Shown here piece after piece: positions 1 to 25,263 of a stretch of DNA of 35,252 nt (its first letter is position 1; each line of letters begins with the position of its first letter). Under the pieces are notes generated by a model. It did no database searches, had not been told where the DNA came from, and worked only from the letters and a program-made list of their open reading frames with translations. This DNA comes from Sulfitobacter sp. (GTDB lineage: Bacteria > Pseudomonadota > Alphaproteobacteria > Rhodobacterales > Rhodobacteraceae), in assembly GCA_024637305.1 (NCBI GenBank), contig JAGXFI010000050.1, positions 1-35,252 of the forward strand, given 5' to 3'. Position numbers and translations under genes: made by a program.

Positions 1-793
1 TACCGCGCGCGATCATCAGGCTGTCCTCAAGCCCGACGCGGACGTGGCCACCCAGAATGGCGGACATGGTGATCAGCGGCATCTGGTGCCGCCCCGCCGC
101 CAGCACCGAAAACGTATAGCTGTCACCGAAAAGCTTGTCGGCGATCAATTTCATGTGCGTCAAGTTCTCAGGGTCCGGACCAATGCCGCCCAACACACCG
201 AAAACGAACTGGATAAACAGGGGGGCTTTTACCAACCCGCGGTCCGCGAAATGACGCAACATATAGAGGTGACTGACGTCGTAACATTCGAATTCGAACT
301 GTGCGCCGCGTTGGTTGCCAAGCTCCTGCAGGATATGGGCCATGTCCCGCGGGGTGTTCTTGAACACTAGATCATCCGATCCTTCGAGAAAGGGTTTTTC
401 CCAGTCGAATTTCCAGTCGGTGATACGTTCGGCCGCCGGATAGAGCGCAAAGTTCATCGTGCCCATGTTGAGCGAACACATCTCGGGTTCGGCTCGTTTC
501 GGCGCGGCCAGACGTTGGTCCAATGTCATCGTCGCGCTTCCGCCCGTCGAGATGTTCAGCACCGCATCACAGCGCTGCTTGATCTGGGGCAGAAAGGCCA
601 TGAAATGCTCAGGGGCCGCCGAGGGTCGACCGTTGTCGGGATCGCGCGCATGAAGATGCAGGATCGCCGCACCCGCTTCGGCCGCGCCGATTGAATTGTC
701 GGTGATCTGTTCTGCAGTCACCGGCAGATAGGGCGACATCGAGGGAGTATGAATCGAACCTGTGATGGCACAGGTGATGATGATCTTAGACAT
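1..793 (-). CDS. BKACE (beta-keto acid cleavage enzyme, DUF849), C-terminus cut by contig edge
   Basis: Translating the reverse strand from the ATG at 793 gives 264 residues with no stop before the window edge. The family is usually about 300 residues, so roughly the last 40-50 are missing. It starts MSKIIITCAITGSIHTPSMS and carries the zinc motif HLHARDP (His46, His48, Arg50); a later VGLED (Glu256) fits the third metal ligand. BKACEs are cytosolic TIM-barrel enzymes that react a beta-keto acid with acetyl-CoA, giving acetoacetate (or a derivative) and a new CoA ester. It is the last visible gene of the operon, 9 bases after the aminotransferase stop, so its substrate is probably the keto product of that enzyme or of a step beyond the edge. 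Family assignment is firm; substrate is unknown. Confidence 0.9.
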   Translation of the reverse strand, partial: MSKIIITCAITGSIHTPSMSPYLPVTAEQITDNSIGAAEAGAAILHLHARDPDNGRPSAAPEHFMAFLPQIKQRCDAVLNISTGGSATMTLDQRLAAPKRAEPEMCSLNMGTMNFALYPAAERITDWKFDWEKPFLEGSDDLVFKNTPRDMAHILQELGNQRGAQFEFECYDVSHLYMLRHFADRGLVKAPLFIQFVFGVLGGIGPDPENLTHMKLIADKLFGDSYTFSVLAAGRHQMPLITMSAILGGHVRVGLEDSLMIARG

Positions 794-802
794 GTTCAGT
801 CC

Positions 803-2149
803 TTAAGTCGCGCCCGAAAGCTCTGGTATTTCAGACATGTAGGTCGCCAGCGATTGGTCCAGAATTGCTGTGATCTCATCGATCTGTTCCTCGTTGACGA
901 TCATCGGGGGGCAGACAAGGAAATGATCGCCGGAAATGCCACCCCTCGTCCTGCGGGAGTAGATGATCAAGCCGTTGTCATAGGCAATGTCGACCAACCG
1001 CGCGTGAGCGTTCAGATGTGTCGGCAGAGGTGTCTTGGTTTTCCGGTCGGCCATCAGTTCGAACGCGGTCAGCAACCCCTTGCCGCGCACGTCCCCGATG
1101 AGCGGGTAGCGCTGCATCAGGCCGCGCAGACGCTCGGCCAGCTTGTCGCCCATCCTCGTTGTGTTTCCCATCAGGTCATGTTCTGCGATCTGTTCCAGCA
1201 CCGCGCATCCTGCTGCGCAGGCCAGTGGATTGCCGGCATAGGTAAAGCCGTGAATGAAGCCACCTGCGGCCATCACGGCCTCGACGATATCGTCTCGCGC
1301 CACCATTGCCCCCAATGGGACATAGCCCGCGCCGAACCCTTTCGAGATTGCGATCAGATCGGGTGCTACGTCCCAGTGTTCGGCCCCAAAAAACCGCCCG
1401 GTGCGCCCCCCGCCCGTCATCACCTCATCATGAATCAGCAGCACGCCATATCGGGTGCAGATTTCACGAACGCGCTGCATGTACCCGGCCGGTGGAACCA
1501 GCGCGCCTGTTGATGCTCCGCCGACCGGTTCGACGATGAAGGCGAGCACGGTATCGGGGCCCTCCTCCTGGATTTTCGCTTCCAGCATGTCGGCGTAATG
1601 CAGACCGGTGGTCCGATCGTCGATATCCAGCCCGTCAAGATAGGCGCGTGGCGCAGGGATCTTGGGCATCCGCTGCATCATCGGATCAAAGGGCGCGGTC
1701 ATCGGAGTATAGCCGGTGATCGCCAGAGCACCCAAGGTGCAGCCGTGATAGCTGGGATAGCGCGAAATCACCTTGTAACGCTGCGGCTCGTTCCTCGTCA
1801 GGGCATACTGCCGTGCCATCTTCAGCGTACTTTCGACCGCTTCGGACCCCCCCGACACGAAGAACACCTTGTTCAGGCCCTCGGGTGCCAAAGCGGCAAC
1901 CATTTTCGCCAGCCGCTCTGAGCTTTCCGTCTGGAAGTGCAACCGGTAGCCGAAAGTCGACTGGTCCATCTGCTTGCGCATCGCGTCCAGAACAGCAGGG
2001 TTGGAATGGCCGATATTGCTGACCATCGCACCGCTTGATCCATCGATATGTCGTTTGCCTTCAGTGTCCCACATGTAAATCCCCTCGGCTCGATCAAGCA
2101 TGGGACGGGGTGATTTGGTCTGATAGAACAAGTTGGTCATTTGGGTCAC
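803..2149 (-). CDS. Class III (omega/beta-type) PLP-dependent aminotransferase
   Basis: 448 residues, normal for class III aminotransferases. Visible landmarks are GGSEA (100-104) for phosphate binding, YHG (134-136) which stacks on the cofactor, the DEV motif (241-243) holding the pyridine-binding Asp, and the PLP lysine Lys270 in AISKGFGAGYVPLG. The family moves amino groups from omega- or beta-amino acids and amines to a keto acid, in the cytosol. A second ATG three codons in (2140) is an alternative start. It begins 4 bases after the ABC ATPase stop, so it is translated from the transporter operon. With a BKACE downstream, a beta-amino acid giving a beta-keto acid is an attractive substrate class, but this is inference. 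Confidence 0.92.
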   Translation of the reverse strand: MTQMTNLFYQTKSPRPMLDRAEGIYMWDTEGKRHIDGSSGAMVSNIGHSNPAVLDAMRKQMDQSTFGYRLHFQTESSERLAKMVAALAPEGLNKVFFVSGGSEAVESTLKMARQYALTRNEPQRYKVISRYPSYHGCTLGALAITGYTPMTAPFDPMMQRMPKIPAPRAYLDGLDIDDRTTGLHYADMLEAKIQEEGPDTVLAFIVEPVGGASTGALVPPAGYMQRVREICTRYGVLLIHDEVMTGGGRTGRFFGAEHWDVAPDLIAISKGFGAGYVPLGAMVARDDIVEAVMAAGGFIHGFTYAGNPLACAAGCAVLEQIAEHDLMGNTTRMGDKLAERLRGLMQRYPLIGDVRGKGLLTAFELMADRKTKTPLPTHLNAHARLVDIAYDNGLIIYSRRTRGGISGDHFLVCPPMIVNEEQIDEITAILDQSLATYMSEIPELSGAT

Positions 2150-2153
2150 GCTT

Positions 2154-2915
2154 TCAGCGAGAAAGATGTTTGCGCAGGAAATTGCGGGTCCGTTCGTTTT
2201 CGGGGTTCTGAAAGATCACCGACGGCGGCCCTTCTTCGACCACCACGCCCTGATCCATGAACAGCACCCGGTCACAGACCGACGCCGCAAAGTCCATTTC
2301 ATGGGTCACGATGATCATGGTCATGTGCTCTTCGGCGAGCTGCTTCATCACCTGGTTGACCTCTTCGACCAGCTCGGGGTCCAGCGCCGAGGTCGCTTCG
2401 TCAAACAGCATCACCTTGGGTTTCATCGCCAGAGCCCGCGCGATGGCCACGCGCTGCTTTTGCCCGCCCGACAGACGGGAGGGATATTCGTCGATTTTTT
2501 CCGACAGGCCGACCTTGGCCAGCTGTTCCTCGGCCAGCTTGTTGGCTTCGGCCTCGGAGAGGCCTTTGAGCATGCGGGGGGCCAACGTAATGTTGCCGCG
2601 CACCGTCAGATGTGGAAACAGGTTGAAGTGCTGGAACACCATGCCGATGTCCTGCCGCACCTGATTAACGTGGGCCTCGTACTGCCGGTAGGGCAATTTC
2701 TTGTTGATCTGCACATCTTCCAGCCAAACTTCGCCCGAGGACAATGGATCAAGTTCGTTGATGGCGCGCAGCAGCGTCGATTTCCCGGACCCCGACGGGC
2801 CGATAATGGCCACGATCTGGCCGCGCTGCACGGTCAGGTTGATGTCCTTGAGAACCTCGAAGGTGCCAAAGCTCTTGGCGGCGTTCTTGATGGTGACAAA
2901 GGCTTGATCGGTCAT
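2154..2915 (-). CDS. Polar amino acid ABC transporter ATPase (GlnQ/HisP type)
   Basis: 253 residues with a full nucleotide-binding domain: Walker [10 protein letters not shown] (39-47), Q-loop near Gln95, signature LSGGQ (148-152), Walker B VMLFDE (168-173) and H-loop His205. The D-loop SALD follows. Length and sequence fit the ATPases of the polar amino acid uptake family (PAAT). It would dimerise under the two permeases encoded immediately upstream (2931-4265). It lies 15 bases after the permease stop and 4 bases before the aminotransferase start, inside a tight operon. Confidence 0.95.
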
Positions 2916-2930
2916 CGAAGCGTTCCTTTC

Positions 2931-3587
2931 TCAGCGCGATGCGGCAATGCGGCGTTCCAGATGGCGCAGCCCGGCCTCAAGCGCGAGGTTGACGATGTAA
3001 TAGCAAAAGGCCGCCGCCAGATAGAATTCGAAAGGCCGGTAGGTGCGGCTGATCGCCTGCTGTGCAGCGAGGGTGAGTTCCATAACGCCAATCACGGAAA
3101 CCAGGGCGGAGTCCTTCAAAAGCGCGATCATGTTGTTGCCCATCGGTGGAATAACTGCCCGCACCGCTTGCGGGATCACGATCCGCCGCAAGGTCTGGCC
3201 GCGCGACAGGCCAAGGGTGCGCGCGCCTTCGTACTGGCCCTTGTCCACCGCCAGGATTGAGGCCTGGATCAGTTCGGAGTTGTAGACGGCAAAGTGCAGT
3301 CCCAGCCCGATCACGCCTGCCACGAACGCAGGCAGATCGATGCCGATCTGGATCAGACCGAAATAGATAAGAAAGAGTTGCAGCAGCAGCGGCGTACCCA
3401 TGAAGAGAAAGGCAAAGCCGCGCACCGGCAGGCGTAGTGCCCAATGAGCGTAAAGCGCTATGACGGCAAAGACGATGCCCCCGAAAAAGCTGAGAATACC
3501 GGCGCAGATGGTGATGGCGATGGTCCAGCCCGCCCCCATCAAAAGGACCCCGAAATAGCTGGGCACCACCGAGAAATCAAGTCCCAT
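2931..3587 (-). CDS. Polar amino acid ABC transporter permease (second of pair)
   Basis: 218 residues with about five hydrophobic segments, typical of the His/Glu/Gln/Arg three-helix-core permeases. The EAA coupling loop is visible as EGARTLGLSRGQTLRRIVIP, the contact site for the ATPase. It pairs with the neighbouring permease (3618-4265) to form the heterodimeric channel. Spacing to the neighbours is 30 bases upstream and 15 downstream. Substrate cannot be read from the sequence; the neighbouring catabolic enzymes suggest an amino acid or an amide derivative. Confidence 0.93.
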   Translation of the reverse strand: MGLDFSVVPSYFGVLLMGAGWTIAITICAGILSFFGGIVFAVIALYAHWALRLPVRGFAFLFMGTPLLLQLFLIYFGLIQIGIDLPAFVAGVIGLGLHFAVYNSELIQASILAVDKGQYEGARTLGLSRGQTLRRIVIPQAVRAVIPPMGNNMIALLKDSALVSVIGVMELTLAAQQAISRTYRPFEFYLAAAFCYYIVNLALEAGLRHLERRIAASR

Positions 3588-3617
3588 GACGGTCTCCTGT
3601 TATCAGGTCCGGGGCGC

Positions 3618-4265
3618 TCATGTGATGCGCGCTCTGCGATCGAGCCAGTTGATCCCGTGGCCCACCGCATAGATGATGATCATGTACAGAAGCCCTGCGA
3701 GCAGAAACATCTCGAACGGTTTGTAGGTCGATCCGATGAACCGCTGTGCCGTATACGTCAGTTCGACCACCGATATCGGTGCAACCAGCGCGGTACCCTT
3801 GATCAGCGCGTTGATATTCACCCCCAAGGGTCGGATCATCATGCGCGCTGCTTGCGGCAGTACCACCTTGCGCATGGTTTCCCACCGGCTCATGCCAAGG
3901 GTGCGCGCGGCTTCGGTCTGGCCGCGGTCGACGGATATGATGGCCCCGCGGATGGTTTCGGTCATATAGGCACCGATATTGACGCCCAGCGCTATGGTTC
4001 CCGCGGCAAAGCTGTCGAGCTGGATGCCGATCTGGGGCCCCCCAAAGTAAAGGATAAAGACCTGGATCAGCGCGGGCGTGCCGCGCCACAGGCTGACATA
4101 AACCGCTCCGATCCACCGAAAGAGCGCCAGGCGCGACATCCGTGCCGCTGCTCCCAGCGCGCCGCAGGTCAGGCCCAGCAATGCAGTGAGGACGGATAGC
4201 TGAATTGTCACCCATGCCGCTTCGAGAAAGAACGGATAAACGCGAAGGATTAGATCTAGGTCCAA
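3618..4265 (-). CDS. Polar amino acid ABC transporter permease (first of pair)
   Basis: 215 residues, hydrophobic, with the EAA loop TEAARTLGMSRWETMRKVVL near the middle, followed by an ALI-rich helix. It belongs to the same permease family as the gene at 2931-3587 but is clearly diverged from it, so the pair forms a heterodimer rather than a recent duplication. The start lies 18 bases after the stop of the creatininase-family gene. That an enzyme gene sits between the binding protein and the permeases argues that hydrolysis and uptake are expressed together. Confidence 0.93.
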   Translation of the reverse strand: MDLDLILRVYPFFLEAAWVTIQLSVLTALLGLTCGALGAAARMSRLALFRWIGAVYVSLWRGTPALIQVFILYFGGPQIGIQLDSFAAGTIALGVNIGAYMTETIRGAIISVDRGQTEAARTLGMSRWETMRKVVLPQAARMMIRPLGVNINALIKGTALVAPISVVELTYTAQRFIGSTYKPFEMFLLAGLLYMIIIYAVGHGINWLDRRARIT

Positions 4266-4283
4266 GAACGCTTGCCTTTCAGC

Positions 4284-5075
4284 TCAGTGATGGTCGCGGC
4301 GTTGCAGGATCGGCAGCGCGCGGATTTCACGTATCAGGGCCGTTGTCTCTTCGATCGCCGCGTGCAGAAATTTCCTGCCGGTCTCAGGGTCGGCAACGGT
4401 CGGGTCCCCCATCGTGCCGTCGGGCGACACCTCGGACCACCAGCGCATGAGCATCGCACCGCCTCCGCCGCCAGCCAGATCGAGGTTGAAGAACTTGCTG
4501 TCCGGATTGTGCAGATTCTGGGTCGTCGACTTTTCGATATGCACGCGTTCCGGATGCAGGTGCATGTACATCGCCGCCTCGAACTCACCAGCGTGGGCGA
4601 TCCCGCCGATTTCGGATTTGCGCACCTCGTTGATACGCTCCGACATCAAATTCCAATATGAGGCCGAAACACAGATGATACCCGTCTCGATCACCGTCTT
4701 GCGTGCAGCCAAATCGAGAACCGGATGGTTGGAGCCATGCGAATTCAGCAGAAGTATCCGACGGAACCCGTGATGCGCCAGCGATTTGGTGATGTCGGTT
4801 ACAAAGGCAATGAGTGTCTCTGGCTGGATCCAGATCACACCAGGGAAGTCTTTGTGATGTTCGTTGAACCCGTAAGGCACCGGCGGCATCACCAACACTT
4901 CATCCGGAGCGGCCTGCGCCACGCCGTTCGCGACGGCCATGCCCAGGACGGTGTCGGTATCAAGCGGCATATGCGGGCCGTGATCTTCCGTGGCCGAGAC
5001 GTTCAGGATAACGACCCGCTCCTTGTCAGCATCACGCACTTCTTCCCAGGTCAGATGGCCATAGGTGGTGGTCAC
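4284..5075 (-). CDS. Creatininase-family amidohydrolase
   Basis: The reading frame is open further upstream (to 5168), but that extension runs into the binding-protein gene and through a hairpin. I choose the GTG at 5073-5075 because AAAGGA stands 10 bases before it, giving 263 residues, the normal size. Metal-ligand motifs of the creatininase family are all present: SATEDHGPHMPLDTD (family form GSTEQHGPHLPLGTD), NSHGSNHP, and HAGEFEAAMYM. Relatives hydrolyse creatinine, formamidopyrimidines, cyclic amides or inosose lactones using two metal ions. Here it sits inside an amino acid transporter operon, so it likely opens an amide or lactam on the imported compound to expose an amino acid. Exact substrate unknown. 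Confidence 0.9.
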   Translation of the reverse strand: MTTTYGHLTWEEVRDADKERVVILNVSATEDHGPHMPLDTDTVLGMAVANGVAQAAPDEVLVMPPVPYGFNEHHKDFPGVIWIQPETLIAFVTDITKSLAHHGFRRILLLNSHGSNHPVLDLAARKTVIETGIICVSASYWNLMSERINEVRKSEIGGIAHAGEFEAAMYMHLHPERVHIEKSTTQNLHNPDSKFFNLDLAGGGGGAMLMRWWSEVSPDGTMGDPTVADPETGRKFLHAAIEETTALIREIRALPILQRRDHH

Positions 5076-5100
5076 GGTGGTGCAGTCCTTTTTAGGAGGG

Positions 5101-5122
5101 CCTGCCGGGACACCCCGGCAGG
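5101..5122 (-). promoter_or_regulatory. Intercistronic GC-rich hairpin after binding-protein gene
   Basis: CCTGCCGGG (5101-5109) and CCCGGCAGG (5114-5122) form a perfect 9-bp stem with a 4-base loop. It lies between the stop of the binding-protein gene (5134) and the ribosome site of the creatininase gene (near 5086). No T-run follows on the minus strand, so it is unlikely to be a full terminator. It better fits a 3' stabiliser or partial attenuator that raises binding-protein mRNA over the rest of the operon. Confidence 0.7.
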
Positions 5123-5133
5123 CAGGCAAGGTT

Positions 5134-5922
5134 TTAGCGGATGTCGCCGCCGACCCATTCCTCTGCAATCTTGAGGTAGGTACCGTCGGCCATCATCTCG
5201 TCCAGCGCCTTTTGCATCGCCGCAGCGAGTTCAGGGTTGCCTTCACGGATTGCGATCCCTGCGCCGATGGGCTCGGCCGCTGGGTCATCGATGGTTGCCA
5301 AATCGTATTGACCGGCCTTCATCGCCAGGATGACCGGGATGGAATCGTTTACGATGACATCTACCCGGCCATTATCCAGCTCGAGCAGCAGCTCAGGCAG
5401 GCCTTTGTACGTCTTTATGTCATAGCCCTGTTCACGCGCCCATTCTTCGTGCGTCTCGCCCAGGGTGACGCCGACCTTCGCATCGTCCAGCTGGGCGACA
5501 GTGGTGATGTCCGATCCGGCCTTGGTGAAGATCGCCCGTTTGGTATTATAGTAAGGGCCGACAAAATCGATCACTTCGTCGCGTTCCGGCGTGATGGACA
5601 TGGAGCCGACCACCGCATCATATTTATTGGCCAGCAGGCCCCCGATGATCCCGTCCCATGCCGTCGTGACGATTTCAGTCTCAAGCCCCATGCGCTTTGC
5701 AATCTCGGTTCCGATTGCGGGGTCAAAGCCGACAACCTGATTTTGTTCGTTCACGAAGTTGAACGGTGGATACTGGCCGCTCATCGCGATTTTAAGCACG
5801 CCGCGTTCCTTGATCTCTGCCAGCTCGTCCGCGCTGGCAGACAACGGCGCAAGAGTCAGACCCATCAGCGCGACGGACCCTACCAACACGCTACGGCGCA
5901 AAATGTTTACGGTTTTTACCAT
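5134..5922 (-). CDS. Amino acid ABC transporter substrate-binding protein (family 3)
   Basis: 262 residues with an N-terminal export signal: a basic start with LRRS, a hydrophobic stretch, and a likely cleavage after SASA (about residue 31). The mature part starts ELAEIKERGVLKIAMSGQYP, the classic family 3 opening. Further hallmarks are GFDPAIGTEIAKRMG and the VGSMSITPERDEVIDFVGPYY segment with the Arg that binds the ligand carboxylate. The twin Arg may allow Tat export but the motif is not canonical. A GGGAG ribosome site precedes the ATG. First gene of the operon, divergent from the LysR regulator. Confidence 0.94.
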   Translation of the reverse strand: MVKTVNILRRSVLVGSVALMGLTLAPLSASADELAEIKERGVLKIAMSGQYPPFNFVNEQNQVVGFDPAIGTEIAKRMGLETEIVTTAWDGIIGGLLANKYDAVVGSMSITPERDEVIDFVGPYYNTKRAIFTKAGSDITTVAQLDDAKVGVTLGETHEEWAREQGYDIKTYKGLPELLLELDNGRVDVIVNDSIPVILAMKAGQYDLATIDDPAAEPIGAGIAIREGNPELAAAMQKALDEMMADGTYLKIAEEWVGGDIR

Positions 5923-6059
5923 GTCAATTCTCCCTGTTGTTTGTGCTCTTTGCGGCCACGCACGTCAGTGATCACCCAAAGAGCTTATGAAGCAAAGGTT
6001 GCGCCGCACCGATCCATAGTGCAAATAGATAATCTAAATAAGGACAATAGATTGAAACT
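5923..6059. promoter_or_regulatory. Divergent promoter region with candidate LysR operator
   Basis: This 137-base gap separates the binding-protein gene from the LysR gene and must hold both promoters. It contains two AT-rich dyads: TAGAT-A-ATCTA (6026-6036) and CAAT-AG-ATTG (6045-6054). The heptamer AATAGAT occurs at 6024 and 6046, exactly 22 bases apart, about two helical turns, as expected for a tetrameric LysR regulator bound on one face. Motifs are seen directly; binding is inferred. Confidence 0.5.
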
Positions 6060-7019
6060 ATGTTGAAGCCATATGAACAAAGGTTTTCATGGAATCTGGA
6101 TTGGAATCTGCTGCGTACCTTCATGGTCATTGTGGACGAAGGTGGCATCACGCCCGCGGCACACTTCCTCGGCCTTAAGCAACCGACGATAAGCGCCGCG
6201 TTGAAACGGCTTGAGGACATCACCGGAAGCAAGCTGGTCAACCGTTCGCCCAGGCACTTCAGCGTCACACCCAGAGGCCGGGTGCTTTATCGTGAAGCCA
6301 GCTCGATATTCGGGGCGGTTACGCAGCTACCCGGGCTGATGGCCGGTCTCGAAGACGAGGTGACGGGACAGATCAGCATCGCGGCTGCAAGCCACGTCGT
6401 CTGCCCGCATTTCGACGCGGTGCTGGAACGCTTCAACCAGCTTTATCCCCGCGTCAGTTACACCGTTTCAACCATGGACAGTGCCAACGTCATCGCCCAC
6501 CTGCAGCAGAACCGCGTCACCTTCGGCATCTGCCTTTTGGGGAACCAGCCTACCGGGCTGGAGGCGCGGGTTCTCTACCGCGAGTATTTCGGCCTGTTCT
6601 GCGGTCCCTCGCACCGGCTTTACGGGCGTGGTGATATCGACATTGCCGAGCTCAGGAACGAAGCCGCAGTGTCGTTCCAGACCGATGAGATCGACGGCCC
6701 CCTGTCAGGAGTCGCCCATATGCGCAGTCGACTGGGGATGCGGCCTGAGCCCAAGGGCCTCTCGTCGAACCTGCCCGAGGTCCGTCGGATGATCGTCGCC
6801 AACTTGGGTATCGGTGCCTTGCCGGTGCATGTGGCCCGCAAAGACGTGCAATCAGGGCTGCTGTGGCAGGTGCCGCCCTACAAGTCCCTTCCCGCCGTAG
6901 ACATTCACCTCCTTACGAATGCCAGACGCAGCATGAACCGCGCTGAAAAGGCCATGATCGAGATGCTCGATGCCGAAATGAACGCCGTACCCTTGCTTGA
7001 ACGCACTTACGGTGAATGA
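6060..7019 (+). CDS. LysR-family transcriptional regulator
   Basis: 319 residues. The winged helix-turn-helix occupies about residues 14-75, with WNLLRTFMVIVDEGGITPAA, then QPTISAALKRLE as the recognition helix and TPRGRVLYREA at the linker helix. The rest fits the LysR effector-binding domain. It is divergent from the amino acid ABC/creatininase/aminotransferase/BKACE operon and is the obvious candidate for its control, sensing the substrate or an intermediate. It converges on the tctA gene downstream, so it is unlikely to be co-transcribed with anything. Confidence 0.93.
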   Translation: MLKPYEQRFSWNLDWNLLRTFMVIVDEGGITPAAHFLGLKQPTISAALKRLEDITGSKLVNRSPRHFSVTPRGRVLYREASSIFGAVTQLPGLMAGLEDEVTGQISIAAASHVVCPHFDAVLERFNQLYPRVSYTVSTMDSANVIAHLQQNRVTFGICLLGNQPTGLEARVLYREYFGLFCGPSHRLYGRGDIDIAELRNEAAVSFQTDEIDGPLSGVAHMRSRLGMRPEPKGLSSNLPEVRRMIVANLGIGALPVHVARKDVQSGLLWQVPPYKSLPAVDIHLLTNARRSMNRAEKAMIEMLDAEMNAVPLLERTYGE

Positions 7020-7242: not shown

Positions 7243-8748
7243 TCATCGGTCAGGCTTGCGCGATCTGGTGACAAGGGCTTTGACGCCAGGGCCCAGCGAC
7301 CAGACGACAAAGATCAACGACAGTCCCAGAATTGTCGCGCTGATCGGGCGGGTGAAGAACACCGTCCAGTCCTGGTTGGAAGCGGCCATGGAGGTCAGGA
7401 AATACCGTTCGGCCAAGGGGCCGAGGATGACGCCCAGCACCAATGGAGCCGAGGGAAAGCCAACCCGCTTCATCCCCCAGCCGACAACCCCGAAGGCAAG
7501 GCAGACATAGACGTCGAAGATGTTGTTTCGCACGCCATAGGCACCGACCACGCTCAGAACGATGATGAAGGCCGCCAAAATCGCCGGAGGTGTGCGCATC
7601 AGCGTCGAGAACATCTGCGCCACGCCAAGGCCGGCACCGATCATCATGATGTTGGCCAGGATCATCGCTGCGAAGATCGTATAGACCATGGACGGGTCCA
7701 TGATGAACAGCAGCGGACCGGGATTGACCCCGTGCAGCATCATCGCCGCCAGCATGATCGCAGTCGCGGCACTGCCCGGAATACCAAGGGTCAGAAGCGG
7801 TATCATCGCGGCCCCGGTGGTCGCGTTCTTGGCAGCTTCGGGTGCGGCCAGCCCTTCATCGACCCCGGTACCGAATTCGGAGCCGCGTTTCGAGACCTGC
7901 TTTTCGATGCCATAGGCGATCACCGCGCCAGGTGTCGCGCCTGCGCCGGGGATCATGCCGATCAGACAGCCGATGCCGGTACCGCGCAGGATTGCACCCT
8001 TGACCTTCAGGAAGTCGCGCAAGCCGGCACCCACCGGCTTGCCGTCAGCCTTTTTTGGACGCAGGTCGCGGTCGGTGGCCAGCAGATCGATCACCTCGCC
8101 GATGGCGAAAAGTCCGATCATCACCACGACGAAACGGATGCCGCTTTCCATTTCTGGCACGCCGAAACTGAACCGGGCCTGTCCATAAAGCGGATCAACC
8201 CCTACCGTACCGATGGCGATACCAGTCACAAGCGACACCATCGTAATGATCGGCTGGTCCTTGGCGATGGCGATCACACTGACCAGCCCCAGCAAGGTCG
8301 CGGCAAAGAATTCAGGCTGCGAAAATTTCAGCGCGAAGGTGGCAAAGGGGGCCGAGAGGAACGCCAGCATCAGCGCACTGACGAGCCCACCGGTAGCCGA
8401 CGCGGTTACGGCAATGGCCAGGGCACGCTTGACCTCGCCCCGTTTCGTCATGGGATAACCGTCCCAGGTTGCGGGCAACGACGCCGGGGTGCCCGGGACG
8501 TTGATCATGATCGCCGAAATCGATCCGCCGAAAACGCCGCCCACATAAATCCCGCCAAGAAACAGCATGGATTGCGTTGGCTCCATCACATAGGTGAACG
8601 GCAGCGCCATCGCCATTGCATTCACGAACGAAATTCCTGGCAGCGCCCCCGCCACCACGCCGACCAAGAGGCCGGTGAGAATCGTCATGAAGGCCCAAAA
8701 TTCGAATGCAGCGGTGAAGCCGCCGCCCAAAAGTTCCAACGCGTTCAT
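7243..8748 (-). CDS. TTT transporter large membrane subunit (TctA family)
   Basis: 501 residues, about 11-12 hydrophobic helices, normal for TctA. Diagnostic motifs are GALPGISFVNAMAMALPF near the N-terminus, GGVFGGSISAIMINVPGTPA, and GMIPGAGATPGAVIAYGIEK in the second repeat. It forms the carboxylate channel with TctB and receives ligand from TctC. TTT systems import small carboxylates such as citrate, tartrate, terephthalate or sulfonated acids. Last gene of the operon, 15 bases after tctB. Substrate not readable; the CoA ligase and acylating dehydrogenase upstream point to a carboxylate that is activated and reduced. Confidence 0.94.
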   Translation of the reverse strand: MNALELLGGGFTAAFEFWAFMTILTGLLVGVVAGALPGISFVNAMAMALPFTYVMEPTQSMLFLGGIYVGGVFGGSISAIMINVPGTPASLPATWDGYPMTKRGEVKRALAIAVTASATGGLVSALMLAFLSAPFATFALKFSQPEFFAATLLGLVSVIAIAKDQPIITMVSLVTGIAIGTVGVDPLYGQARFSFGVPEMESGIRFVVVMIGLFAIGEVIDLLATDRDLRPKKADGKPVGAGLRDFLKVKGAILRGTGIGCLIGMIPGAGATPGAVIAYGIEKQVSKRGSEFGTGVDEGLAAPEAAKNATTGAAMIPLLTLGIPGSAATAIMLAAMMLHGVNPGPLLFIMDPSMVYTIFAAMILANIMMIGAGLGVAQMFSTLMRTPPAILAAFIIVLSVVGAYGVRNNIFDVYVCLAFGVVGWGMKRVGFPSAPLVLGVILGPLAERYFLTSMAASNQDWTVFFTRPISATILGLSLIFVVWSLGPGVKALVTRSRKPDR

Positions 8749-8763
8749 CTTCTTGCTTTCCGA

Positions 8764-9360
8764 TCAGTAAATTCCGACGAGCCGCAGCAACCAGATGCTG
8801 ACTCCGTCGAAAACGCCGCTGCCGCGCGGCAATGGCATCAGCGCCAGACCCATGAACAACCAAAGCAACCCGACCGTGCCGATCAGCGTGATCGGGATCA
8901 CGACAAGCAGGTTGCGCGTACCCCCAAACCAGCACCAGAGCGCGATAAACAGGCAGGTGGCGACCGCAAAACCCAGGATCGGCAGAAGCCACCCATAGGC
9001 GCAGATGCCAACCAGCCCGACCAGCGCCTTGCCCATGTGGTAATGCCCATCCTCGGCCGGCGGCTGCATCATCGGCAGGCGCGTGCGCCTTCGTGTCGCC
9101 CAGAGATCATGAATGATCCAGATTGCCGAAAACAGGGCCAGCGCGGACAGCATCGTGCGCGGCCAGAAGCCAGGGCCGAGGCCGTTGCCGGCGATCCTCT
9201 GGTCGCTCTGAAACATGAACGACGGCAGGATCAGCGCCAGCACCAACAGCCCCACCGGCACCAAAAAGACCAGCAGAGTGGCCAGGCCGGAGGGAGCCAT
9301 CCCCCCGGACCCGGCGTCTCTGCCCGGCGTCGCGCGGTTATCGTCGGCGGGCACCCTCAC
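8764..9360 (-). CDS. TTT transporter small membrane subunit (TctB family)
   Basis: 198 residues with four hydrophobic stretches and the TctB-like GLGPGFWPRTMLSALALFSA motif. A polar N-terminus of about 25 residues precedes the first helix; an in-frame ATG at residue 21 (MAPSGLATLL) is an alternative start. It sits between tctC (2 bases upstream) and tctA, the usual order C-B-A. TctB proteins vary much in sequence, so the assignment rests on length, topology and position. Confidence 0.88.
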   Translation of the reverse strand: MRVPADDNRATPGRDAGSGGMAPSGLATLLVFLVPVGLLVLALILPSFMFQSDQRIAGNGLGPGFWPRTMLSALALFSAIWIIHDLWATRRRTRLPMMQPPAEDGHYHMGKALVGLVGICAYGWLLPILGFAVATCLFIALWCWFGGTRNLLVVIPITLIGTVGLLWLFMGLALMPLPRGSGVFDGVSIWLLRLVGIY

Positions 9361-9362
9361 GG

Positions 9363-10316
9363 TTATTTGGCCAGCTGTTCCGCGATCAGGTCGCGGAAAT
9401 CACTGATCATGGCCTGCGCCGCATCGCCGGTCACGGGCTCGATACAGGTATAGGTCGAAGCGCAGAACTCCTGCCATTTCTCAGACGCAGTCGCTGCGGC
9501 TACGACCTCTTCCAGTTTCGCGATCGCTTCATCGGGTGTTCCGGCCGCCACGGCGATGCTGCGGTAGTTGTCCAGCCCCGAAATATCGATGCCCAATTCC
9601 GCAGATGTCGGCACATCCGGAAAGACAGGATGCCGTTCAGCTGAAAACACCACCAGAGGCTTCAGTTGACCGGCTTCGATGAACTGAGCCACATCGCCGG
9701 GCTCTTCATAGATGGCAGCGGTGTGGCCACCGATCGGCGAGGCATAGCGTTCGGCGGGAGCTTGGAACGGCACGTTTTCCATCTGCACGCCCTCGTCGGC
9801 GAGCAGCTTTAGTGTCACATCGTCCTGCGTCCCATAACCTGACGTGGCAACGGTGATCGCGCCGGGGTTTTCCCTCGCGAAATCAAACAGCTCTTGCGCG
9901 GTTTGGTGCGGGCTGCTGGCTGGCACGAACAGGAACGAAGGCGAGCTTTGGACGACTGAAATCACCCGGAAATCATCGGGCTTGTTGTCACCGAGGCCCG
10001 AGGCCCAGGAGGCCACGGTCAGAGAGATCAGCGTACCGATGGTATAGCCGTCGGCCGGGTTCGTGCGCAGTTGTGTCAGACCGGCATTGCCCGACGCGCC
10101 GCCAACGTTCGATACCGGAACGGACACACCCAGCGGACCTTCGATCAGTTGTGCCATGGTACGGCCCATTACGTCAGACCCGCCGCCCGGGCCGAAGGTC
10201 ACGATCATGTTGATCGGACGGTTCGGATAATCCTGAGCGATCCCTGCGGTGGCAAAAGCCATGCCGCTGAAAAGCGCTGCGGCCCCTAGCGTGGTTGTGA
10301 TGATGCGATTATTCAT
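9363..10316 (-). CDS. TTT transporter substrate-binding protein (TctC family)
   Basis: I start at the ATG 10314-10316 because GGGAGG stands 5 bases upstream; an ATG seven codons earlier is less likely. This gives 317 residues. A signal peptide ends near ATAGIAQ, and the mature protein opens DYPNRPINMIVTFGPGGGSD, the signature TctC/Bug start in which the PGGGSD loop binds ligand water and carboxylate. Periplasmic receptor for the TctAB channel encoded just downstream. It follows the acyl-CoA ligase gene by 53 bases. Confidence 0.94.
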   Translation of the reverse strand: MNNRIITTTLGAAALFSGMAFATAGIAQDYPNRPINMIVTFGPGGGSDVMGRTMAQLIEGPLGVSVPVSNVGGASGNAGLTQLRTNPADGYTIGTLISLTVASWASGLGDNKPDDFRVISVVQSSPSFLFVPASSPHQTAQELFDFARENPGAITVATSGYGTQDDVTLKLLADEGVQMENVPFQAPAERYASPIGGHTAAIYEEPGDVAQFIEAGQLKPLVVFSAERHPVFPDVPTSAELGIDISGLDNYRSIAVAAGTPDEAIAKLEEVVAAATASEKWQEFCASTYTCIEPVTGDAAQAMISDFRDLIAEQLAK

Positions 10317-10369
10317 AGTTTCCTCCCTTTTTATCAATGTTCCGAATTTCTTCGGCCGTTTCTTTGTGG

Positions 10370-11884
10370 CTATCCAATGAGCTGATTCAGTTTCAGCCGC
10401 TGGATCTTGCCCGATGGTCCCTTGGGCAGGTCATCCAGAATGTGAATGACCTCGGGGCTCTTGAATTTTCCGAGTTTCGACTGACACAGCAGGATCAGGT
10501 CTTCACCGCTGACCGTTGCGCCATCGCTGAGCTTCACCGCGGCCTCTACCCGTTCTCCATAGGTGGCGCAGGGCCGGGCAAAGGCGGCGGCCTCGACCAC
10601 CTCGGGATGGGCGTACAGGGCTTCGTCGACTTCACGCGGTGCGATGTTTTCCCCTCCCTTGATGATCAGCTCTTTCAGCCGCCCGCTGACAAAGACGTAC
10701 CCATCGTCATCCATCCGCCCCAGATCGCCGGTGCGCAGCCAGCCATCTTCGGTCATCGTGGCCGCCGTAGCATCGGGGTTTCTGAAATACCCCAGCATAA
10801 CGTTGGGGCCGCGGACGGCTATTTCGCCTTCGAGACCCCTCGCGACGGGGACCAGGGTCGGCGACAGGATCGTCACTTCGTTTCCGTAAGGCAATCCGGG
10901 CGAGCCTATTTTGCGCAACCCCGGAGGCAGCGGGTTCGACAGGATCTGCGCTGCCGTTTCGGTCAGCCCCATCGTCTCGACAATCGGGATGCCGAACCGG
11001 GTTTCGAACGCCGTTTGCGTCTCAACCGCAAGCGCCGAGGAGGCGGAGCGTCCGAAGCGAATACGCGCCTTTGTCTGGTCATCAGGATCGGCCTGGCCGT
11101 GCAAAAGATGCGAGATGATCGTCGGGACGACCGAAAACCAGGTGATCGCGTGGGTACTGCAGGTCTGCCAGAACCGGCTTGCAGAAAACCGGTCGCAGAC
11201 CACAATCGTACCGCCCGAAACGAGGGCACCGATGATCGAAACGCACATCCCGTTGATGTGATAGATCGGCAGCACGCACAGCCCTCGATCGTCAGGCGTC
11301 AGACCATGGGCCAGCGTGACCGTCCAGCCGCCAGCCAAGAGGCTCGCGTGGGAATGCAGCACGCCTTTGGGCCGCCCTGTGGTGCCCGATGTGTACATCA
11401 GCAGCGCGTGATCCCTCGGATCAAGATCAGCCAGCGGTGCGGTGGTTGATCCTTCGGGCCACGCCACCGTCTCGTCCACCGTGATCGGTTGCGCGGTCAC
11501 GTCATGGGCGGCGGCGGCATCGGCAAACAGGTCGCGCTGTTCTGCGCCCAACAAGAGCACTGACGCCTCGGAATGGGACAAGGCATATCCCATCGCTTCC
11601 GGACCTGCGGCCAAATTGATGACGGCGGCGCGAAAACCGCCGTAGAACAGGCCGAACAGGCACAGGATTGCCTGCCGGCTGTTCGGCAACATCACCGCCA
11701 CGCTCTCACCTTTGCCCACCCCCATCCCCGAAATCCGCCCGGCAATCTCAGCCGCGCCGTCGCGTAACTCGGCCCAGGTCAGGGAAGGCGCATCGGGAAA
11801 GACATGGCTGACCCGCCCGCCATCATGCTTTGCCCGATGGTCCAACAGGGTGCGGATGGTGCCGGTTGGTACGACCGTGTTCAT
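10370..11884 (-). CDS. AMP-forming acyl-CoA ligase (SauT-like candidate)
   Basis: The start at 11884 overlaps the stop of the dehydrogenase gene as ATGA, giving 504 residues. Motifs of the adenylate-forming family: MYTSGTTGRPKGVLHSH (P-loop, about 163-179), TGDLGRMDDDGYVFVSGRLK (hinge and A8), and the C-terminal GPSGKIQRLK with the catalytic A10 lysine. It activates a carboxylic acid with ATP and CoA. Coupling to a CoA-acylating aldehyde dehydrogenase means the acyl-CoA is probably reduced to an aldehyde. That pair plus a TTT carboxylate importer resembles sulfoacetate catabolism (SauT then SauS). Other short carboxylates are equally allowed by sequence alone. Confidence 0.9.
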   Translation of the reverse strand: MNTVVPTGTIRTLLDHRAKHDGGRVSHVFPDAPSLTWAELRDGAAEIAGRISGMGVGKGESVAVMLPNSRQAILCLFGLFYGGFRAAVINLAAGPEAMGYALSHSEASVLLLGAEQRDLFADAAAAHDVTAQPITVDETVAWPEGSTTAPLADLDPRDHALLMYTSGTTGRPKGVLHSHASLLAGGWTVTLAHGLTPDDRGLCVLPIYHINGMCVSIIGALVSGGTIVVCDRFSASRFWQTCSTHAITWFSVVPTIISHLLHGQADPDDQTKARIRFGRSASSALAVETQTAFETRFGIPIVETMGLTETAAQILSNPLPPGLRKIGSPGLPYGNEVTILSPTLVPVARGLEGEIAVRGPNVMLGYFRNPDATAATMTEDGWLRTGDLGRMDDDGYVFVSGRLKELIIKGGENIAPREVDEALYAHPEVVEAAAFARPCATYGERVEAAVKLSDGATVSGEDLILLCQSKLGKFKSPEVIHILDDLPKGPSGKIQRLKLNQLIG

Positions 11885-13290
11885 TTGCCTGCCTCGACCC
11901 AATAGTCGGAAAAGATGTCATCCACAGACGGTTCGCGCGGCGCAATCGTGCGTATCACCTTGGTGCGCTGCATGAAATGCCGCCAGTGCAGATTGTCGTC
12001 GATTGAATTGCCGCCCCAACTGCCACAGCCCATGGACAACGAAAACGGCATTCCGTTGTCGAACGATCCGCCGGTGGCGAAGGTATGGGCTTGGTTCACG
12101 ATCACTCTGCAGGTAGGCAAAGTCCGGCCCAGCGCCACTGCACGGTCGTCATCGGCTGTGTGAATGCCAACGGAATGGCCTGCCCCCTGATAAGACAGGA
12201 TGCGCCCGGTGATCGCTACGGCATGGTCATAGTCCCGCGCACGGTACAATGCAGCCACAAGGCTCAGCTTTTCGCCAGACAGCGGATGGTCGGGACCGAT
12301 GCCGCGCGTCTCGACGGCGATAAAGCGGGTTCCCTCGGGCACAGCGCCTGTCAGGCCCAGTTTTTCGATCATCAGACCGGGATCTTTGGCGATCACGTCG
12401 CGGTTCAGATGCCCGTCGGGCCAAAGTTGAGCGATCAGCGCATCAGCGCTGTCTTCCGGCAGGTGCGCGCCACCTTCGGCTGCCAGTGCCGCGAGAAAGT
12501 CATCATAGACCGCATCCACCACGACAATCGCGTTTTCCGACGAACAGGAGGTGGCGTTGTCGAAGGTCTTGGATGCCGTGATCTTGCGTGCCGCTGCCAC
12601 CAGGTCGGCGGTCTCATCCACGATCACGGTGACATTGCCCGCCCCCACACCCACGGCCGGTGTACCGCTGGAATAGGCGCGGCGGACGTTATCCTGGCTG
12701 CCGGTGACGACTGCGAGGTCCGCCAGTTCCAGCAGGCGCTGCGTGTCGGCCTTGGTGCCCGGCGGCGGGACCATCTGAACCAACCGCTTGTCCTCTCCGA
12801 TTTTATCGAACTCCGCGTGGATGAATTCCAACAGCGCCGCGCAACAGGCCACACCCTTGGGCGACGGCGACACAATGATCGCGTTGCCGCATTTCAGCGC
12901 GTTGATGATGTTGTTGGCCGGCGTCGCGGCTGGGTTGGTCGACGGCACGACAGCACCGATGACACCCAAGGGGCGGGCGATTTCGGTTATGCCGGTGGCG
13001 GGATCGTCTGACAGAATACCGAATGTCTGCACGTCGCGGATATCGCGCATCAGTCCGAGCGTCTTTCGGTGGTTTTTTGTGATCTTGTCGGTCACGTTGC
13101 CCAGACCCGTCGTGCTGACCGCAATTTCGGCAAGCTCGCGATTGCGACCTGGCTCCATAATGGCCCAGGCAGCAGCTTGAGCGGCGCGATCGTAGCGCGC
13201 TTGGCTGCCGTTTGCCTCATACTCGGACTGGGCGGTACGCGCGTCCGAGATCAAGACATCCACCTGGGTTGTCGCGGCCTTGCCTGCCAT
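11881..13290 (-). CDS. CoA-acylating aldehyde dehydrogenase (SauS-like candidate)
   Basis: 469 residues, resembling the EutE and AdhE-N-terminal type of acylating aldehyde dehydrogenase rather than the NAD-carboxylate type. Seen: RPLGVIGAVVPSTNPAATPA, GAGNV (216-220), and the nucleophile Cys249 in FDNATSCSSEN, which parallels FDNGMICASEQ in AdhE. It interconverts an acyl-CoA and its aldehyde with NAD(P)H. In Cupriavidus, SauS reduces sulfoacetyl-CoA to sulfoacetaldehyde; the same partner type (CoA ligase) follows here. A GGGAGAG ribosome site precedes the ATG. First gene of the operon, divergent from a LacI regulator. No sulfoacetaldehyde acetyltransferase (Xsc) gene is in this window. Confidence 0.9.
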   Translation of the reverse strand: MAGKAATTQVDVLISDARTAQSEYEANGSQARYDRAAQAAAWAIMEPGRNRELAEIAVSTTGLGNVTDKITKNHRKTLGLMRDIRDVQTFGILSDDPATGITEIARPLGVIGAVVPSTNPAATPANNIINALKCGNAIIVSPSPKGVACCAALLEFIHAEFDKIGEDKRLVQMVPPPGTKADTQRLLELADLAVVTGSQDNVRRAYSSGTPAVGVGAGNVTVIVDETADLVAAARKITASKTFDNATSCSSENAIVVVDAVYDDFLAALAAEGGAHLPEDSADALIAQLWPDGHLNRDVIAKDPGLMIEKLGLTGAVPEGTRFIAVETRGIGPDHPLSGEKLSLVAALYRARDYDHAVAITGRILSYQGAGHSVGIHTADDDRAVALGRTLPTCRVIVNQAHTFATGGSFDNGMPFSLSMGCGSWGGNSIDDNLHWRHFMQRTKVIRTIAPREPSVDDIFSDYWVEAGK

Positions 13291-13332
13291 TGTTCAATCT
13301 CTCCCGTTGGATCAGAAACTTTACGCTAAGGA

Positions 13333-13360
13333 ATGAAAATAGTATTGCAAATGTTTTCAT
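13333..13360. promoter_or_regulatory. Candidate LacI-family operator in divergent promoter
   Basis: ATGAAAA (13333-13339) and TTTTCAT (13354-13360) are exact inverted repeats 14 bases apart, with the palindrome TTGCAA (13345-13350) nearly central. It lies in the 96-base gap between the dehydrogenase gene and the divergent LacI-family gene, where it could repress both. The dyad is seen; its use by the adjacent regulator is inferred. Confidence 0.55.
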
Positions 13361-13386
13361 AAAAATGCCACAAGTGCTTAATTAAA

Positions 13387-17230: not shown

Positions 17231-17261
17231 TACGATTTCTATACGATGCTGTTGTATCGTT
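17231..17261. promoter_or_regulatory. Candidate IclR operator in divergent promoter
   Basis: TACGAT occurs at 17231 and 17242, 11 bases apart (one helical turn). The second copy faces ATCGT at 17256-17260, making a dyad ACGAT-8-ATCGT. The cluster lies in the 153-base gap between the IclR gene and the divergent M81 gene, the place expected for autoregulation and control of both operons. The repeats are seen; binding is inferred. Confidence 0.5.
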
Positions 17262-17335
17262 TGGCAATACACTGGCGACTTTCCGACGCGCTTGATCGTC
17301 GGAGGTTGCGGACGCGGGCAAGCTTGAGGGGCGGA

Positions 17336-18850: not shown

Positions 18851-18927
18851 TGTCCAACGAACCACCCCCGCGCCACAAAAGGGCAACTTGAGCCCGGCGC
18901 ACCTTCATCAACCAACGGGAGTAAAAG

Positions 18928-20538: not shown

Positions 20539-20549
20539 TTTGGCCCCCC

Positions 20550-20579
20550 ATGGTCCCGCGTTTCAAAGCGCGGGGCCAT
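20550..20579 (+). promoter_or_regulatory. Intercistronic hairpin after binding-protein gene
   Basis: ATGGTCCCGCG (20550-20560) pairs with CGCGGGGCCAT (20569-20579): an 11-bp stem with one G-U pair and an 8-base loop. It starts 12 bases after the binding-protein stop and ends 34 bases before the permease start. There is no T-run, so partial attenuation or 3'-end protection of the binding-protein mRNA is more likely than full termination. Confidence 0.7.
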
Positions 20580-20613
20580 ACCCCTGAATTTTCACCCCCG
20601 AGAGGTCTGGCCG

Positions 20614-24070: not shown

Positions 24071-24087
24071 ATAAAGGAGACGACGAC

Positions 24088-25251: not shown

Positions 25252-25263
25252 AAAGGATATCTT

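What the first reader, a model, noticed from the sequence alone, without database searches (positions are those of the whole stretch)
1..7019. Candidate unassigned catabolic route: amide hydrolase, aminotransferase and BKACE inside one amino acid ABC operon
Seen: one minus-strand operon orders a binding protein, creatininase-family hydrolase, two permeases, ATPase, class III aminotransferase and BKACE, with a divergent LysR gene. Known: creatininase relatives open amides or lactams, class III aminotransferases make keto compounds from beta/omega amino acids, and BKACEs cleave beta-keto acids with acetyl-CoA. Inference: a cyclic or amidated beta-amino compound is imported, hydrolysed, transaminated and cleaved. 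I know no described pathway with exactly this set.
Basis: partly seen in the sequence, partly recalled or inferred. Interest (0 to 1): 0.72.

Follow-up and report, generated by a model that had tools for sequence, protein, structure and literature searches.

The report
Likely acetyl-beta-lysine breakdown operon
A conserved gene cluster, found mainly in marine and salt-loving bacteria, looks like a complete route for importing and eating an acetylated beta-amino acid, most likely a salt-protecting compound made by methane-producing microbes; this has not been tested in the laboratory.

Summary
The window starts inside the BKACE gene; another contig of the same genome overlaps it by 141 exact bases and adds a GNAT acetyltransferase and an acetylpolyamine-amidohydrolase-like (APAH) deacetylase. 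The creatininase relative lies in the same importer-aminotransferase operon in 69 of 80 fetched loci. Of 65 uncut loci, 17 carry BKACE+APAH; 48 carry instead a 3-oxoacid CoA-transferase, with an ArgE-like M20 deacylase (47) and often a thiolase (30). Mixed pairings occur outside this set. So two functions are kept while their proteins are swapped: cleavage of a beta-keto acid and removal of an N-acyl group. gabD-gabT genes lie beside the module in two distant lineages, pointing to GABA as product. BKACE, APAH and binding protein lack acidic residues expected to hold a free side-chain amine. Best fit: catabolism of N6-acetyl-beta-lysine (or beta-lysine) via 6-acetamido-3-oxohexanoate, 4-acetamidobutyryl-CoA and GABA, a route I recall from Barker's enzymology in a Pseudomonas, without genes known to me. 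The creatininase relative is replaceable and probably hydrolyses an amide or lactam; its place is unresolved. No activity has been tested.

The parts
2..793 (-). BKACE, beta-keto acid cleavage enzyme, cut at its 3' end by the contig end (264 of about 310 aa)
   Evidence: PF05853 303.9 bits; NF053538 '3,5-dioxohexanoate:acetyl-CoA acetone transferase' 442.6 bits over its 430 cut-off; continues on contig C162 by a 141-base exact overlap
803..2149 (-). class III aminotransferase (AT3); proposed N6-acetyl-beta-lysine transaminase
   Evidence: PF00202 340.7 bits; below the cut-off of all 25 NCBIfam families listed of 69 matched (best PRK07483 469/485); motif lysine K270 in 66/66 relatives
2154..2915 (-). 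ABC transporter ATPase, polar amino acid type
   Evidence: PF00005; none of the 25 NCBIfam families listed of 193 reaches its cut-off
2931..3587 (-). ABC permease 2
   Evidence: PF00528, TIGR01726 over cut-off
3618..4265 (-). ABC permease 1
   Evidence: PF00528, TIGR01726 over cut-off
4284..5075 (-). creatininase-family hydrolase (amide or lactam hydrolase, position in pathway unresolved)
   Evidence: PF02633 229 bits; below all four NCBIfam cut-offs matched: MftE 130/172, creatininase 111/235, IolN 76/245, ArfB 24/180; start at GTG 5075
5134..5922 (-). periplasmic binding protein, family 3
   Evidence: PF00497; R114 and D193 in 68/68 relatives, side-chain acid position is S48 (62) or T48 (6) of 68
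6060..7019 (+). divergent LysR-type regulator
   Evidence: PF00126 + PF03466; divergent from the operon in 67 of the 69 operon loci, the other two being L077 and L081, whose contigs start inside the operon

Best explanation
The operon imports and degrades an N-acetylated beta-amino acid, most likely N6-acetyl-beta-lysine (6-acetamido-3-aminohexanoate), and beta-lysine itself where the GNAT gene is present. Proposed steps, all inferred from families and context: (1) the ABC importer takes up the zwitterion; (2) the class III aminotransferase removes the 3-amino group, giving the beta-keto acid 6-acetamido-3-oxohexanoate; the acetyl group keeps the 6-amine from closing a ring on the ketone; (3) BKACE with acetyl-CoA gives 4-acetamidobutyryl-CoA and acetoacetate (in type C operons CoA-transferase plus a thiolase do the same); (4) the APAH-like or M20 enzyme removes the acetyl group; (5) the 4-aminobutyrate unit enters GABA catabolism through GabT and GabD. 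The GNAT acetylates free beta-lysine. The creatininase relative hydrolyses an amide: either 2-pyrrolidone, the lactam expected when 4-aminobutyryl-CoA closes on itself, or an imported conjugate. Shown here: gene content, order, conservation, swaps of parts, residue patterns. Not shown: any activity or substrate.
For: Two functions conserved through swaps of unrelated proteins: 17 loci BKACE+APAH (M20 0/17), 48 loci CoA-transferase (M20 47, thiolase 30, APAH in the operon 0). Mixed pairings exist outside this set: BKACE+M20 without APAH in L158, CoA-transferase+APAH without M20 in L170. At least 3 label changes on the aminotransferase tree inside the creatininase set, 5 with further loci (quick tree). 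Product: gabD and gabT (over NCBIfam cut-offs TIGR01780, TIGR00700) lie beside the module in two distant lineages: Thioclava L036/L040, one regulator gene beyond LysR, and G847/G870. GNAT and deacetylase together in 11 of 17 type B loci. Neutral side chain: Kce Glu14, which binds the 5-amino group of its substrate (PMC10470551, passages), is Ile14 in 17/17 (position carried over through the alignments by eye); two acids that I recall as polyamine-binding in M. ramosa APAH are V (14) or I (3) and A (17) of 17; the side-chain acid of the 5 nearest solved binding proteins is S/T in 68/68. N6-acetyl-beta-lysine is a zwitterionic osmolyte of methanogens (PMC1224877, passages); the named host genera are mostly marine or saline (recalled). 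The own genome has GabT and GabD.
Against: No gene here is shown orthologous to anything with a tested N6-acetyl-beta-lysine activity. The creatininase relative, on average the best conserved protein of the set (mean identity 84.7%, highest of six in 43 of 65 loci), has no necessary step in this route. 33 of 48 type C and 6 of 17 type B operons lack GNAT. gabDT adjacency is seen in two lineages only and was noticed after the fact. The FAD oxidoreductase and RidA of some sister operons and the Delta1-pyrroline/piperideine-2-carboxylate reductase of L170 are not explained. L167 has aminotransferase, GNAT and APAH but no BKACE or CoA-transferase beside them. 18 of 48 type C loci show no thiolase on the operon strand. 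The GNAT matches no beta-lysine acetyltransferase model. AblA-type lysine 2,3-aminomutase over cut-off: 0 of 398 genomes of the phylum. Barker's pathway is cited from recall only.
Confidence: 0.55

Rival explanations
1. One reading: an amidated or cyclic beta-amino compound is imported and opened first by the creatininase relative, then transaminated and cleaved. The most concrete case is beta-glutamine: amide hydrolysis to beta-glutamate, transamination to 3-oxoglutarate, cleavage to malonyl-CoA.
For: The creatininase relative directly follows the binding-protein gene and keeps 67-95% identity over the 69 operon loci; beta-glutamine is also a zwitterionic osmolyte of methanogens (PMC1224877, passages); a DMFA2_C protein (PF20254, amidase family by name) stands in front of the aminotransferase elsewhere.
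Against: Does not explain the deacylase (APAH or M20) or GNAT; BKACE passes NF053538, not the 3-oxoadipate model NF053568 (140.5 bits against 350); gabDT neighbours do not fit a malonyl-CoA product; L160, with the same importer and type C operon, has no creatininase relative in the operon and its genome has none close (29% and 33%).
Confidence: 0.15
2. Same core logic but another N-acyl diamino beta-amino acid (for example an N-acetyl 3,5-diaminopentanoate), or a beta-lysine conjugate such as an opine-like or peptide compound, the creatininase relative, the DMFA2_C protein or the FAD oxidoreductase each freeing the same beta-amino acid from a different conjugate.
For: Creatininase relative (close, 88% or more) and DMFA2_C protein exclude each other in the 17 genomes searched; these genes sit with close aminotransferases (52-72%) and different importers (polar amino acid or PotD type).
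Against: FAD oxidoreductase and RidA were not searched genome-wide, and relatives of them occur beside the creatininase operon too (RidA 75% in L062; FAD oxidoreductase 46% in L015, 43% in L056), so they are not clean alternatives; gabDT neighbours favour a C4 product, hence a C6 substrate; no such conjugate is known to me in the sea.
Confidence: 0.2
3. BKACE handles 3,5-dioxohexanoate (triacetate) as in phloroglucinol breakdown, as the NCBIfam name suggests; the rest of the operon supplies it.
For: NF053538 over cut-off; a BKACE-family triacetate acetoacetate-lyase is proven in Clostridium scatologenes (PMC10470551, passages).
Against: No phloroglucinol-reductase-like or cyclase-like gene recognised in the operon; an amino acid importer, a transaminase and N-deacylases are not needed; the family is promiscuous: Paracoccus BKACE15 takes beta-ketohexanoate, 3,5-dioxohexanoate and others and its role is unknown (PMC11961710, passages).
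Confidence: 0.05
4. Unrelated genes brought together by chance or by assembly error.
For: Draft genome in 183 contigs, BKACE cut by a contig end.
Against: 69 of 80 loci have the same operon, also on long contigs (up to 3.6 Mb, L035); swaps preserve function; haloarchaeal plasmids carry M20, creatininase relative, CoA-transferase pair and aminotransferase side by side with another importer.
Confidence: 0.01

Closest known systems
Beta-lysine catabolism of a Pseudomonas (H. A. Barker and co-workers, about 1979-1981; recalled, no paper seen; enzymes N6-acetyl-beta-lysine transaminase EC 2.6.1.65 and 4-acetamidobutyryl-CoA deacetylase EC 3.5.1.51, both recalled)
   Same: Same sequence of reaction types: N6-acetylation, transamination at C3, CoA-dependent cleavage, deacetylation, GABA
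   Different: No genes known to me; no creatininase-type step; that enzyme combined deacetylase and thioesterase activity (recalled)
Ectoine catabolism (eut/doe with Ehu importer; scheme recalled)
   Same: Importer of the polar amino acid type, hydrolase, N-deacetylase, class III aminotransferase for an acetylated diamino acid osmolyte
   Different: Ehu cut-offs not reached; no EutD/DoeA-type gene in the operon; BKACE has no place in it
[quoted passage not shown]
   Same: BKACE family, beta-keto acid plus acetyl-CoA
   Different: Glu14 that binds the amine is Ile14 here; Kce model 197.5 bits against a cut-off of 382, on the truncated protein
BKACE15 of Paracoccus denitrificans (PDB 8RIO, 8RIP, 9HNF)
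   Same: Close relative (326.7 bits over 264 aa; PDB 3E02, unannotated, is closer at 369.7), same Ile at the Glu14 position
   Different: Physiological role unknown; context described as aromatic degradation (PMC11961710, passages)
Acetylpolyamine amidohydrolases (PDB 3MEN, 3Q9B, 6PHR)
   Same: Whole-length similarity (325, 267, 262 bits), zinc and catalytic motifs kept
   Different: The two acids recalled as polyamine-binding are V/I and A in 17/17
Creatininase, MftE, IolN, ArfB
   Same: PF02633 family, most metal ligands
   Different: Below all four cut-offs; Glu122 of creatininase (recalled as metal ligand) is Ser in 78/78

Membership tests
BKACE (PF05853) / NF053538 | Pfam and NCBIfam cut-offs, motif histidines | tested here: met
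   303.9 bits vs 24.8; 442.6 vs 430 on a truncated protein; H46, H48 17/17
[quoted passage not shown] NF052387 cut-off | tested here: not met
   Ile14 17/17, role of Glu14 from PMC10470551 passages, position via by eye; 197.5 vs 382 bits on the truncated protein
Creatininase proper (TIGR04448) | equivalog cut-off; Glu122 metal ligand (recalled role) | tested here: not met
   111.4 vs 235 bits; Ser at that position in the alignment and in 78/78
Creatininase superfamily hydrolase (PF02633) | gathering score; E-x-H, D, N-x-H-G and HAGExE motifs | tested here: met
   229 vs 31.3 bits; E32 77/78, H34 77/78 (one gap each), D43, H115, E166, E168 78/78 in the numbering of window:4287-5081; 78 of 80 loci had enough coverage
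Acetylpolyamine amidohydrolase as a polyamine deacetylase | acids at M. ramosa positions 106 and 117 (recalled as polyamine-binding) | tested here: not met
   V105 14/17, I 3/17; A116 17/17
APAH/HDAC fold hydrolase | Hist_deacetyl cut-off, HH, DxDxHH, GLD, GGY motifs | tested here: met
   236.7 vs 27.9 bits; motifs kept in 17/17
Barker-type N6-acetyl-beta-lysine catabolism | transaminase, CoA-dependent beta-keto cleavage, N-deacetylase, route to GABA encoded together | tested here: inconclusive
   Gene types present and swapped by equivalents; gabDT beside the module in two lineages; substrate not tested
Barker-type N6-acetyl-beta-lysine catabolism | enzyme activities on N6-acetyl-beta-lysine, 6-acetamido-3-oxohexanoate and 4-acetamidobutyryl-CoA | not testable with these tools
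   needs assays
Ectoine importer EhuABCD | TIGR03005, 03004, 03003, 02995 cut-offs | tested here: not met
   EhuA 312.6/345.4, EhuC 157.9/197, EhuD 145.6/205.2, EhuB 95.9/190.9 bits
AblB beta-lysine acetyltransferase | match of the GNAT to an NCBIfam beta-lysine acetyltransferase model | tested here: not met
   three weak matches (22-24 bits) to other GNAT models only

The most novel reading that the evidence does not exclude
These operons are the missing gene set of an N6-acetyl-beta-lysine (beta-lysine) catabolic route, a bacterial sink for an archaeal osmolyte in saline habitats, built as interchangeable parts (BKACE or CoA-transferase plus thiolase; APAH or M20), with transient N-acetyl protection and a creatininase-family enzyme of new specificity, probably a lactam or amide hydrolase.
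Probability: 0.5. Interest if true: 0.78.

Novelty: new variant of a known kind. Interest (0 to 1): 0.63.

Why it matters
If true, it gives candidate genes for two enzyme activities that, to my knowledge, have had no sequence (EC 2.6.1.65 and EC 3.5.1.51; recalled), assigns a role to a clade of BKACE enzymes and to an APAH subgroup without the polyamine residues, and makes the fate of a methanogen osmolyte in saline sediment testable with cultured strains. The swap pattern is also a clean example of a pathway held constant while its proteins change.

Tried and rejected
Considered and set aside: ectoine-type catabolism (importer cut-offs not reached, no ectoine-hydrolase-type gene, no place for BKACE); triacetate/phloroglucinol route (no partner genes recognised); polyamine catabolism (APAH acids lost, beta-keto step unexplained); acyl-homoserine-lactone breakdown and beta-tyrosine or beta-phenylalanine breakdown (no need for deacetylase and GNAT; by reasoning only, no call). 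C180 as the continuation of the BKACE gene was tested and rejected: no overlap, and C162 overlaps exactly.

Led nowhere: lysine 2,3-aminomutase (AblA) as a neighbour: 21 of 398 genomes match at E<=1e-100, 0 over the family cut-off, none in the own genome, and their neighbourhoods were not read. Neighbourhoods of the 11 divergent creatininase relatives were printed for 8 of 11; none of the 11 has another operon gene by tblastn at E<=1e-15. Literature: one search was too broad (69,624 papers, 30 listed); (15 papers) found the term acetamido-3-oxohexanoate once, in a gut-metabolite list (PMC12787813, passage), and otherwise beta-lysine acetyltransferase; one search found one unrelated paper; two searches found none; others (59 papers, 20 listed; 3 papers) listed none on such a route by title and abstract start. 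One search listed 20 papers for BKACE terms. Of the 28 aminotransferase places in other genomes found, 19 were read; the nine left out are G425, G429, G554 (same group as read ones) and six of 44-45% identity. One of the 19 (L155) is identical in its aminotransferase to L018 of the creatininase set. No structure prediction or fold search was run.
Full report
What is there. The window is contig C72 of a 183-contig genome. Its first 7 kb hold, on the minus strand and with gaps of 4-58 bases, a family 3 binding protein, a creatininase-family protein, two permeases, an ATPase, a class III aminotransferase and BKACE, and divergently a LysR regulator. The creatininase-family gene most likely starts at GTG 5075 behind AAGGA. 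BKACE is cut by the contig end. Contig C162 starts with the same 141 bases, completes the gene and continues with a GNAT acetyltransferase and, overlapping its end, a histone-deacetylase-fold protein closest to acetylpolyamine amidohydrolases (325 bits to PDB 3MEN).

Conservation. A scan of the genome collection with the creatininase-family protein gave 80 loci. 69 hold the operon; the other 11 are the divergent ones of 35-42% identity. Titles of the 69 name about 30 genera by my count, mostly Rhodobacterales, Hoeflea and Cohaesibacter, which I know as largely marine or saline. Four of the 69 are cut by contig ends. The 65 others split cleanly. Type B (17): BKACE followed by the APAH-like gene in 17 of 17, GNAT in 11, M20 and thiolase in none. 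Type C (48): 3-oxoacid CoA-transferase subunits A and B in place of BKACE, an ArgE/DapE-like M20 deacylase in 47, a thiolase in 30, GNAT in 15, APAH on the operon strand in none (L056 has a 32% APAH relative nearby on the other strand). On a quick tree of the aminotransferase the B/C label needs at least three changes within this set and five with the further loci; some branches are long or open, so the counts are rough.

The core module is wider than the creatininase relative. In 398 genomes of the phylum, the own one included, 28 have an aminotransferase at E<=1e-110. I read 19 of the 28 places in other genomes: 14 have BKACE next to it, 3 the CoA-transferase pair (one of these, L155, repeats L018 of the first set), 2 neither (L167, L169). 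Importers differ: the same polar-amino-acid type, a PotD type, or none recognised. The further gene also differs: creatininase relative, a 549-aa protein with a DMFA2_C domain (N,N-dimethylformamidase-like; six loci), or an FAD oxidoreductase (four of six PotD-type loci) with RidA in three of these. In 17 genomes searched, a close creatininase relative (88% or more) occurs only in the own genome and G597, and the DMFA2_C protein only in G489, G443, G632 and G684. The FAD oxidoreductase and RidA are not clean alternatives: L062 has RidA, and L015 and L056 have an FAD oxidoreductase relative, near the creatininase operon. L158 pairs BKACE with M20, L170 pairs CoA-transferase with APAH and no M20, and L161 and L162 have BKACE with both, so the cleavage step and the deacylase step vary independently. 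In the order of G535, 7 of 293 genomes have a close aminotransferase; all six newly read loci have the CoA-transferase pair and M20, none the creatininase relative; L206 also has APAH and RidA. Two haloarchaeal plasmids carry M20, a 42-44% creatininase relative, a CoA-transferase pair and a 39% aminotransferase side by side, with a PotD-type importer.

Reading the chemistry. BKACE and CoA-transferase plus thiolase are two known ways to turn a beta-keto acid into an acyl-CoA (established enzymology). That both follow the same aminotransferase says, by inference, that the aminotransferase makes a beta-keto acid, so its substrate is a beta-amino acid. APAH and M20 are both N-deacylases by family, so an N-acyl group has to come off. 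GNAT beside a deacetylase suggests transient acetylation, as in ornithine synthesis; a free 6-amine on a 3-keto acid would close to a ring.

Which beta-amino acid. Three lines point to a C6 chain with a masked amine. First, gabD and gabT, over their NCBIfam cut-offs, lie beside the module in Thioclava (L036, L040; one regulator gene beyond LysR) and directly beside it in G847 and G870 of another order. In the other loci searched nothing above 34% identity turned up except a 37% relative of GabD in L033 and the operon aminotransferase of L160 itself. A C4 amino acid product means a C6 substrate. This was noticed afterwards and rests on two lineages. Second, residues: Kce uses Glu14 to hold the 5-amino group of its substrate (PMC10470551, passages); the operon's BKACE has Ile there in 17 of 17, as does Paracoccus BKACE15 (position read across the alignments by eye). 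The APAH-like protein lacks both acids that I recall as polyamine-binding (V or I, and A, 17 of 17). Third, the binding protein keeps the arginine and aspartate for an amino acid head group (68 of 68), but the acid facing the side chain in the five nearest solved proteins is Ser or Thr in 68 of 68; the roles of these residues are recalled. N6-acetyl-beta-lysine fits: a zwitterion with a neutral side chain, accumulated by methanogens at high salt (PMC1224877, passages).

Relation to known biochemistry. From recall, Barker's group showed in a Pseudomonas that beta-lysine is degraded through N6-acetyl-beta-lysine, 3-keto-6-acetamidohexanoate, 4-acetamidobutyryl-CoA and GABA. I could not open these papers. 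Searches of the open-access library listed no paper on such a route; the one mention of an intermediate is 6-acetamido-3-oxohexanoate in a list of gut metabolites (PMC12787813, passage). So 'no genes known' rests on these searches, some of them broad or capped, and on recall.

The creatininase relative. It keeps the family's main metal motifs but has Ser where creatininase has Glu122 and scores below the four characterised subfamilies matched. On average it is the best conserved protein of the set (84.7% mean identity; highest of six in 43 of 65 loci), yet L160 (within the same starred tree branch as Thioclava) lacks it while keeping importer and type C operon, with no close copy in its genome. 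I favour a hydrolase of 2-pyrrolidone, the lactam that 4-aminobutyryl-CoA tends to form (recalled chemistry), slightly over release of the amino acid from an imported conjugate. Neither is shown.

Verdict. Confidence is high (about 0.85) that this is a beta-amino acid to beta-keto acid route with an N-deacylation, moderate (0.55) for N6-acetyl-beta-lysine, and low for the creatininase step.

Noticed in passing
window 7243-14418: Next to the operon lies a likely sulfoacetate cluster: acylating sulfoacetaldehyde dehydrogenase SauS (NF047625, 683 bits over 600), an acyl-CoA-ligase-type gene, a tripartite-tricarboxylate-type transporter and a divergent LacI-type regulator (the last two by sequence look).
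   Followed up: partly
window 17246-28299: Peptide or amide scavenging cluster: an MlrC-like protein (165 bits, far below the cut-off of 999) and an M20 hydrolase (PRK07473 over cut-off); a dipeptide-type ABC transporter, a second M20, a membrane-dipeptidase-like and a HutD-like protein by sequence look only.
   Followed up: partly
L095 (Natronorubrum aibiense plasmid), L151 (Natrinema gelatinilyticum plasmid): Haloarchaeal version: M20, creatininase relative, a longer CoA-transferase pair and class III aminotransferase side by side, with a divergent PotD-type importer that includes an M24 peptidase-family gene with weak similarity to ectoine hydrolase.
   Followed up: partly
L164:6303-7949, L163, L165-L168: A DMFA2_C (N,N-dimethylformamidase-like) protein stands in front of the same aminotransferase-BKACE-GNAT-APAH module where the creatininase relative is absent (L167 without BKACE; L164 ends at the contig end after BKACE); function unknown.
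   Followed up: partly
L152:11753-13220, L157, L161, L162: PotD-importer versions of the module end with an FAD oxidoreductase of the DAO family, with RidA in L152, L161 and L162; their role in the route is unexplained.
   Followed up: no
L170:3-908: Delta1-pyrroline/piperideine-2-carboxylate reductase (NF004793 over cut-off) next to RidA at the end of a CoA-transferase plus APAH version of the operon.
   Followed up: no
L207:9937-10965, L208:11069-12097: Near the operon of G847 and G870 lies an APAH whose N-terminal sequence matches PDB 6PHR almost letter for letter by eye, so an APAH of solved structure sits beside this pathway.
   Followed up: no
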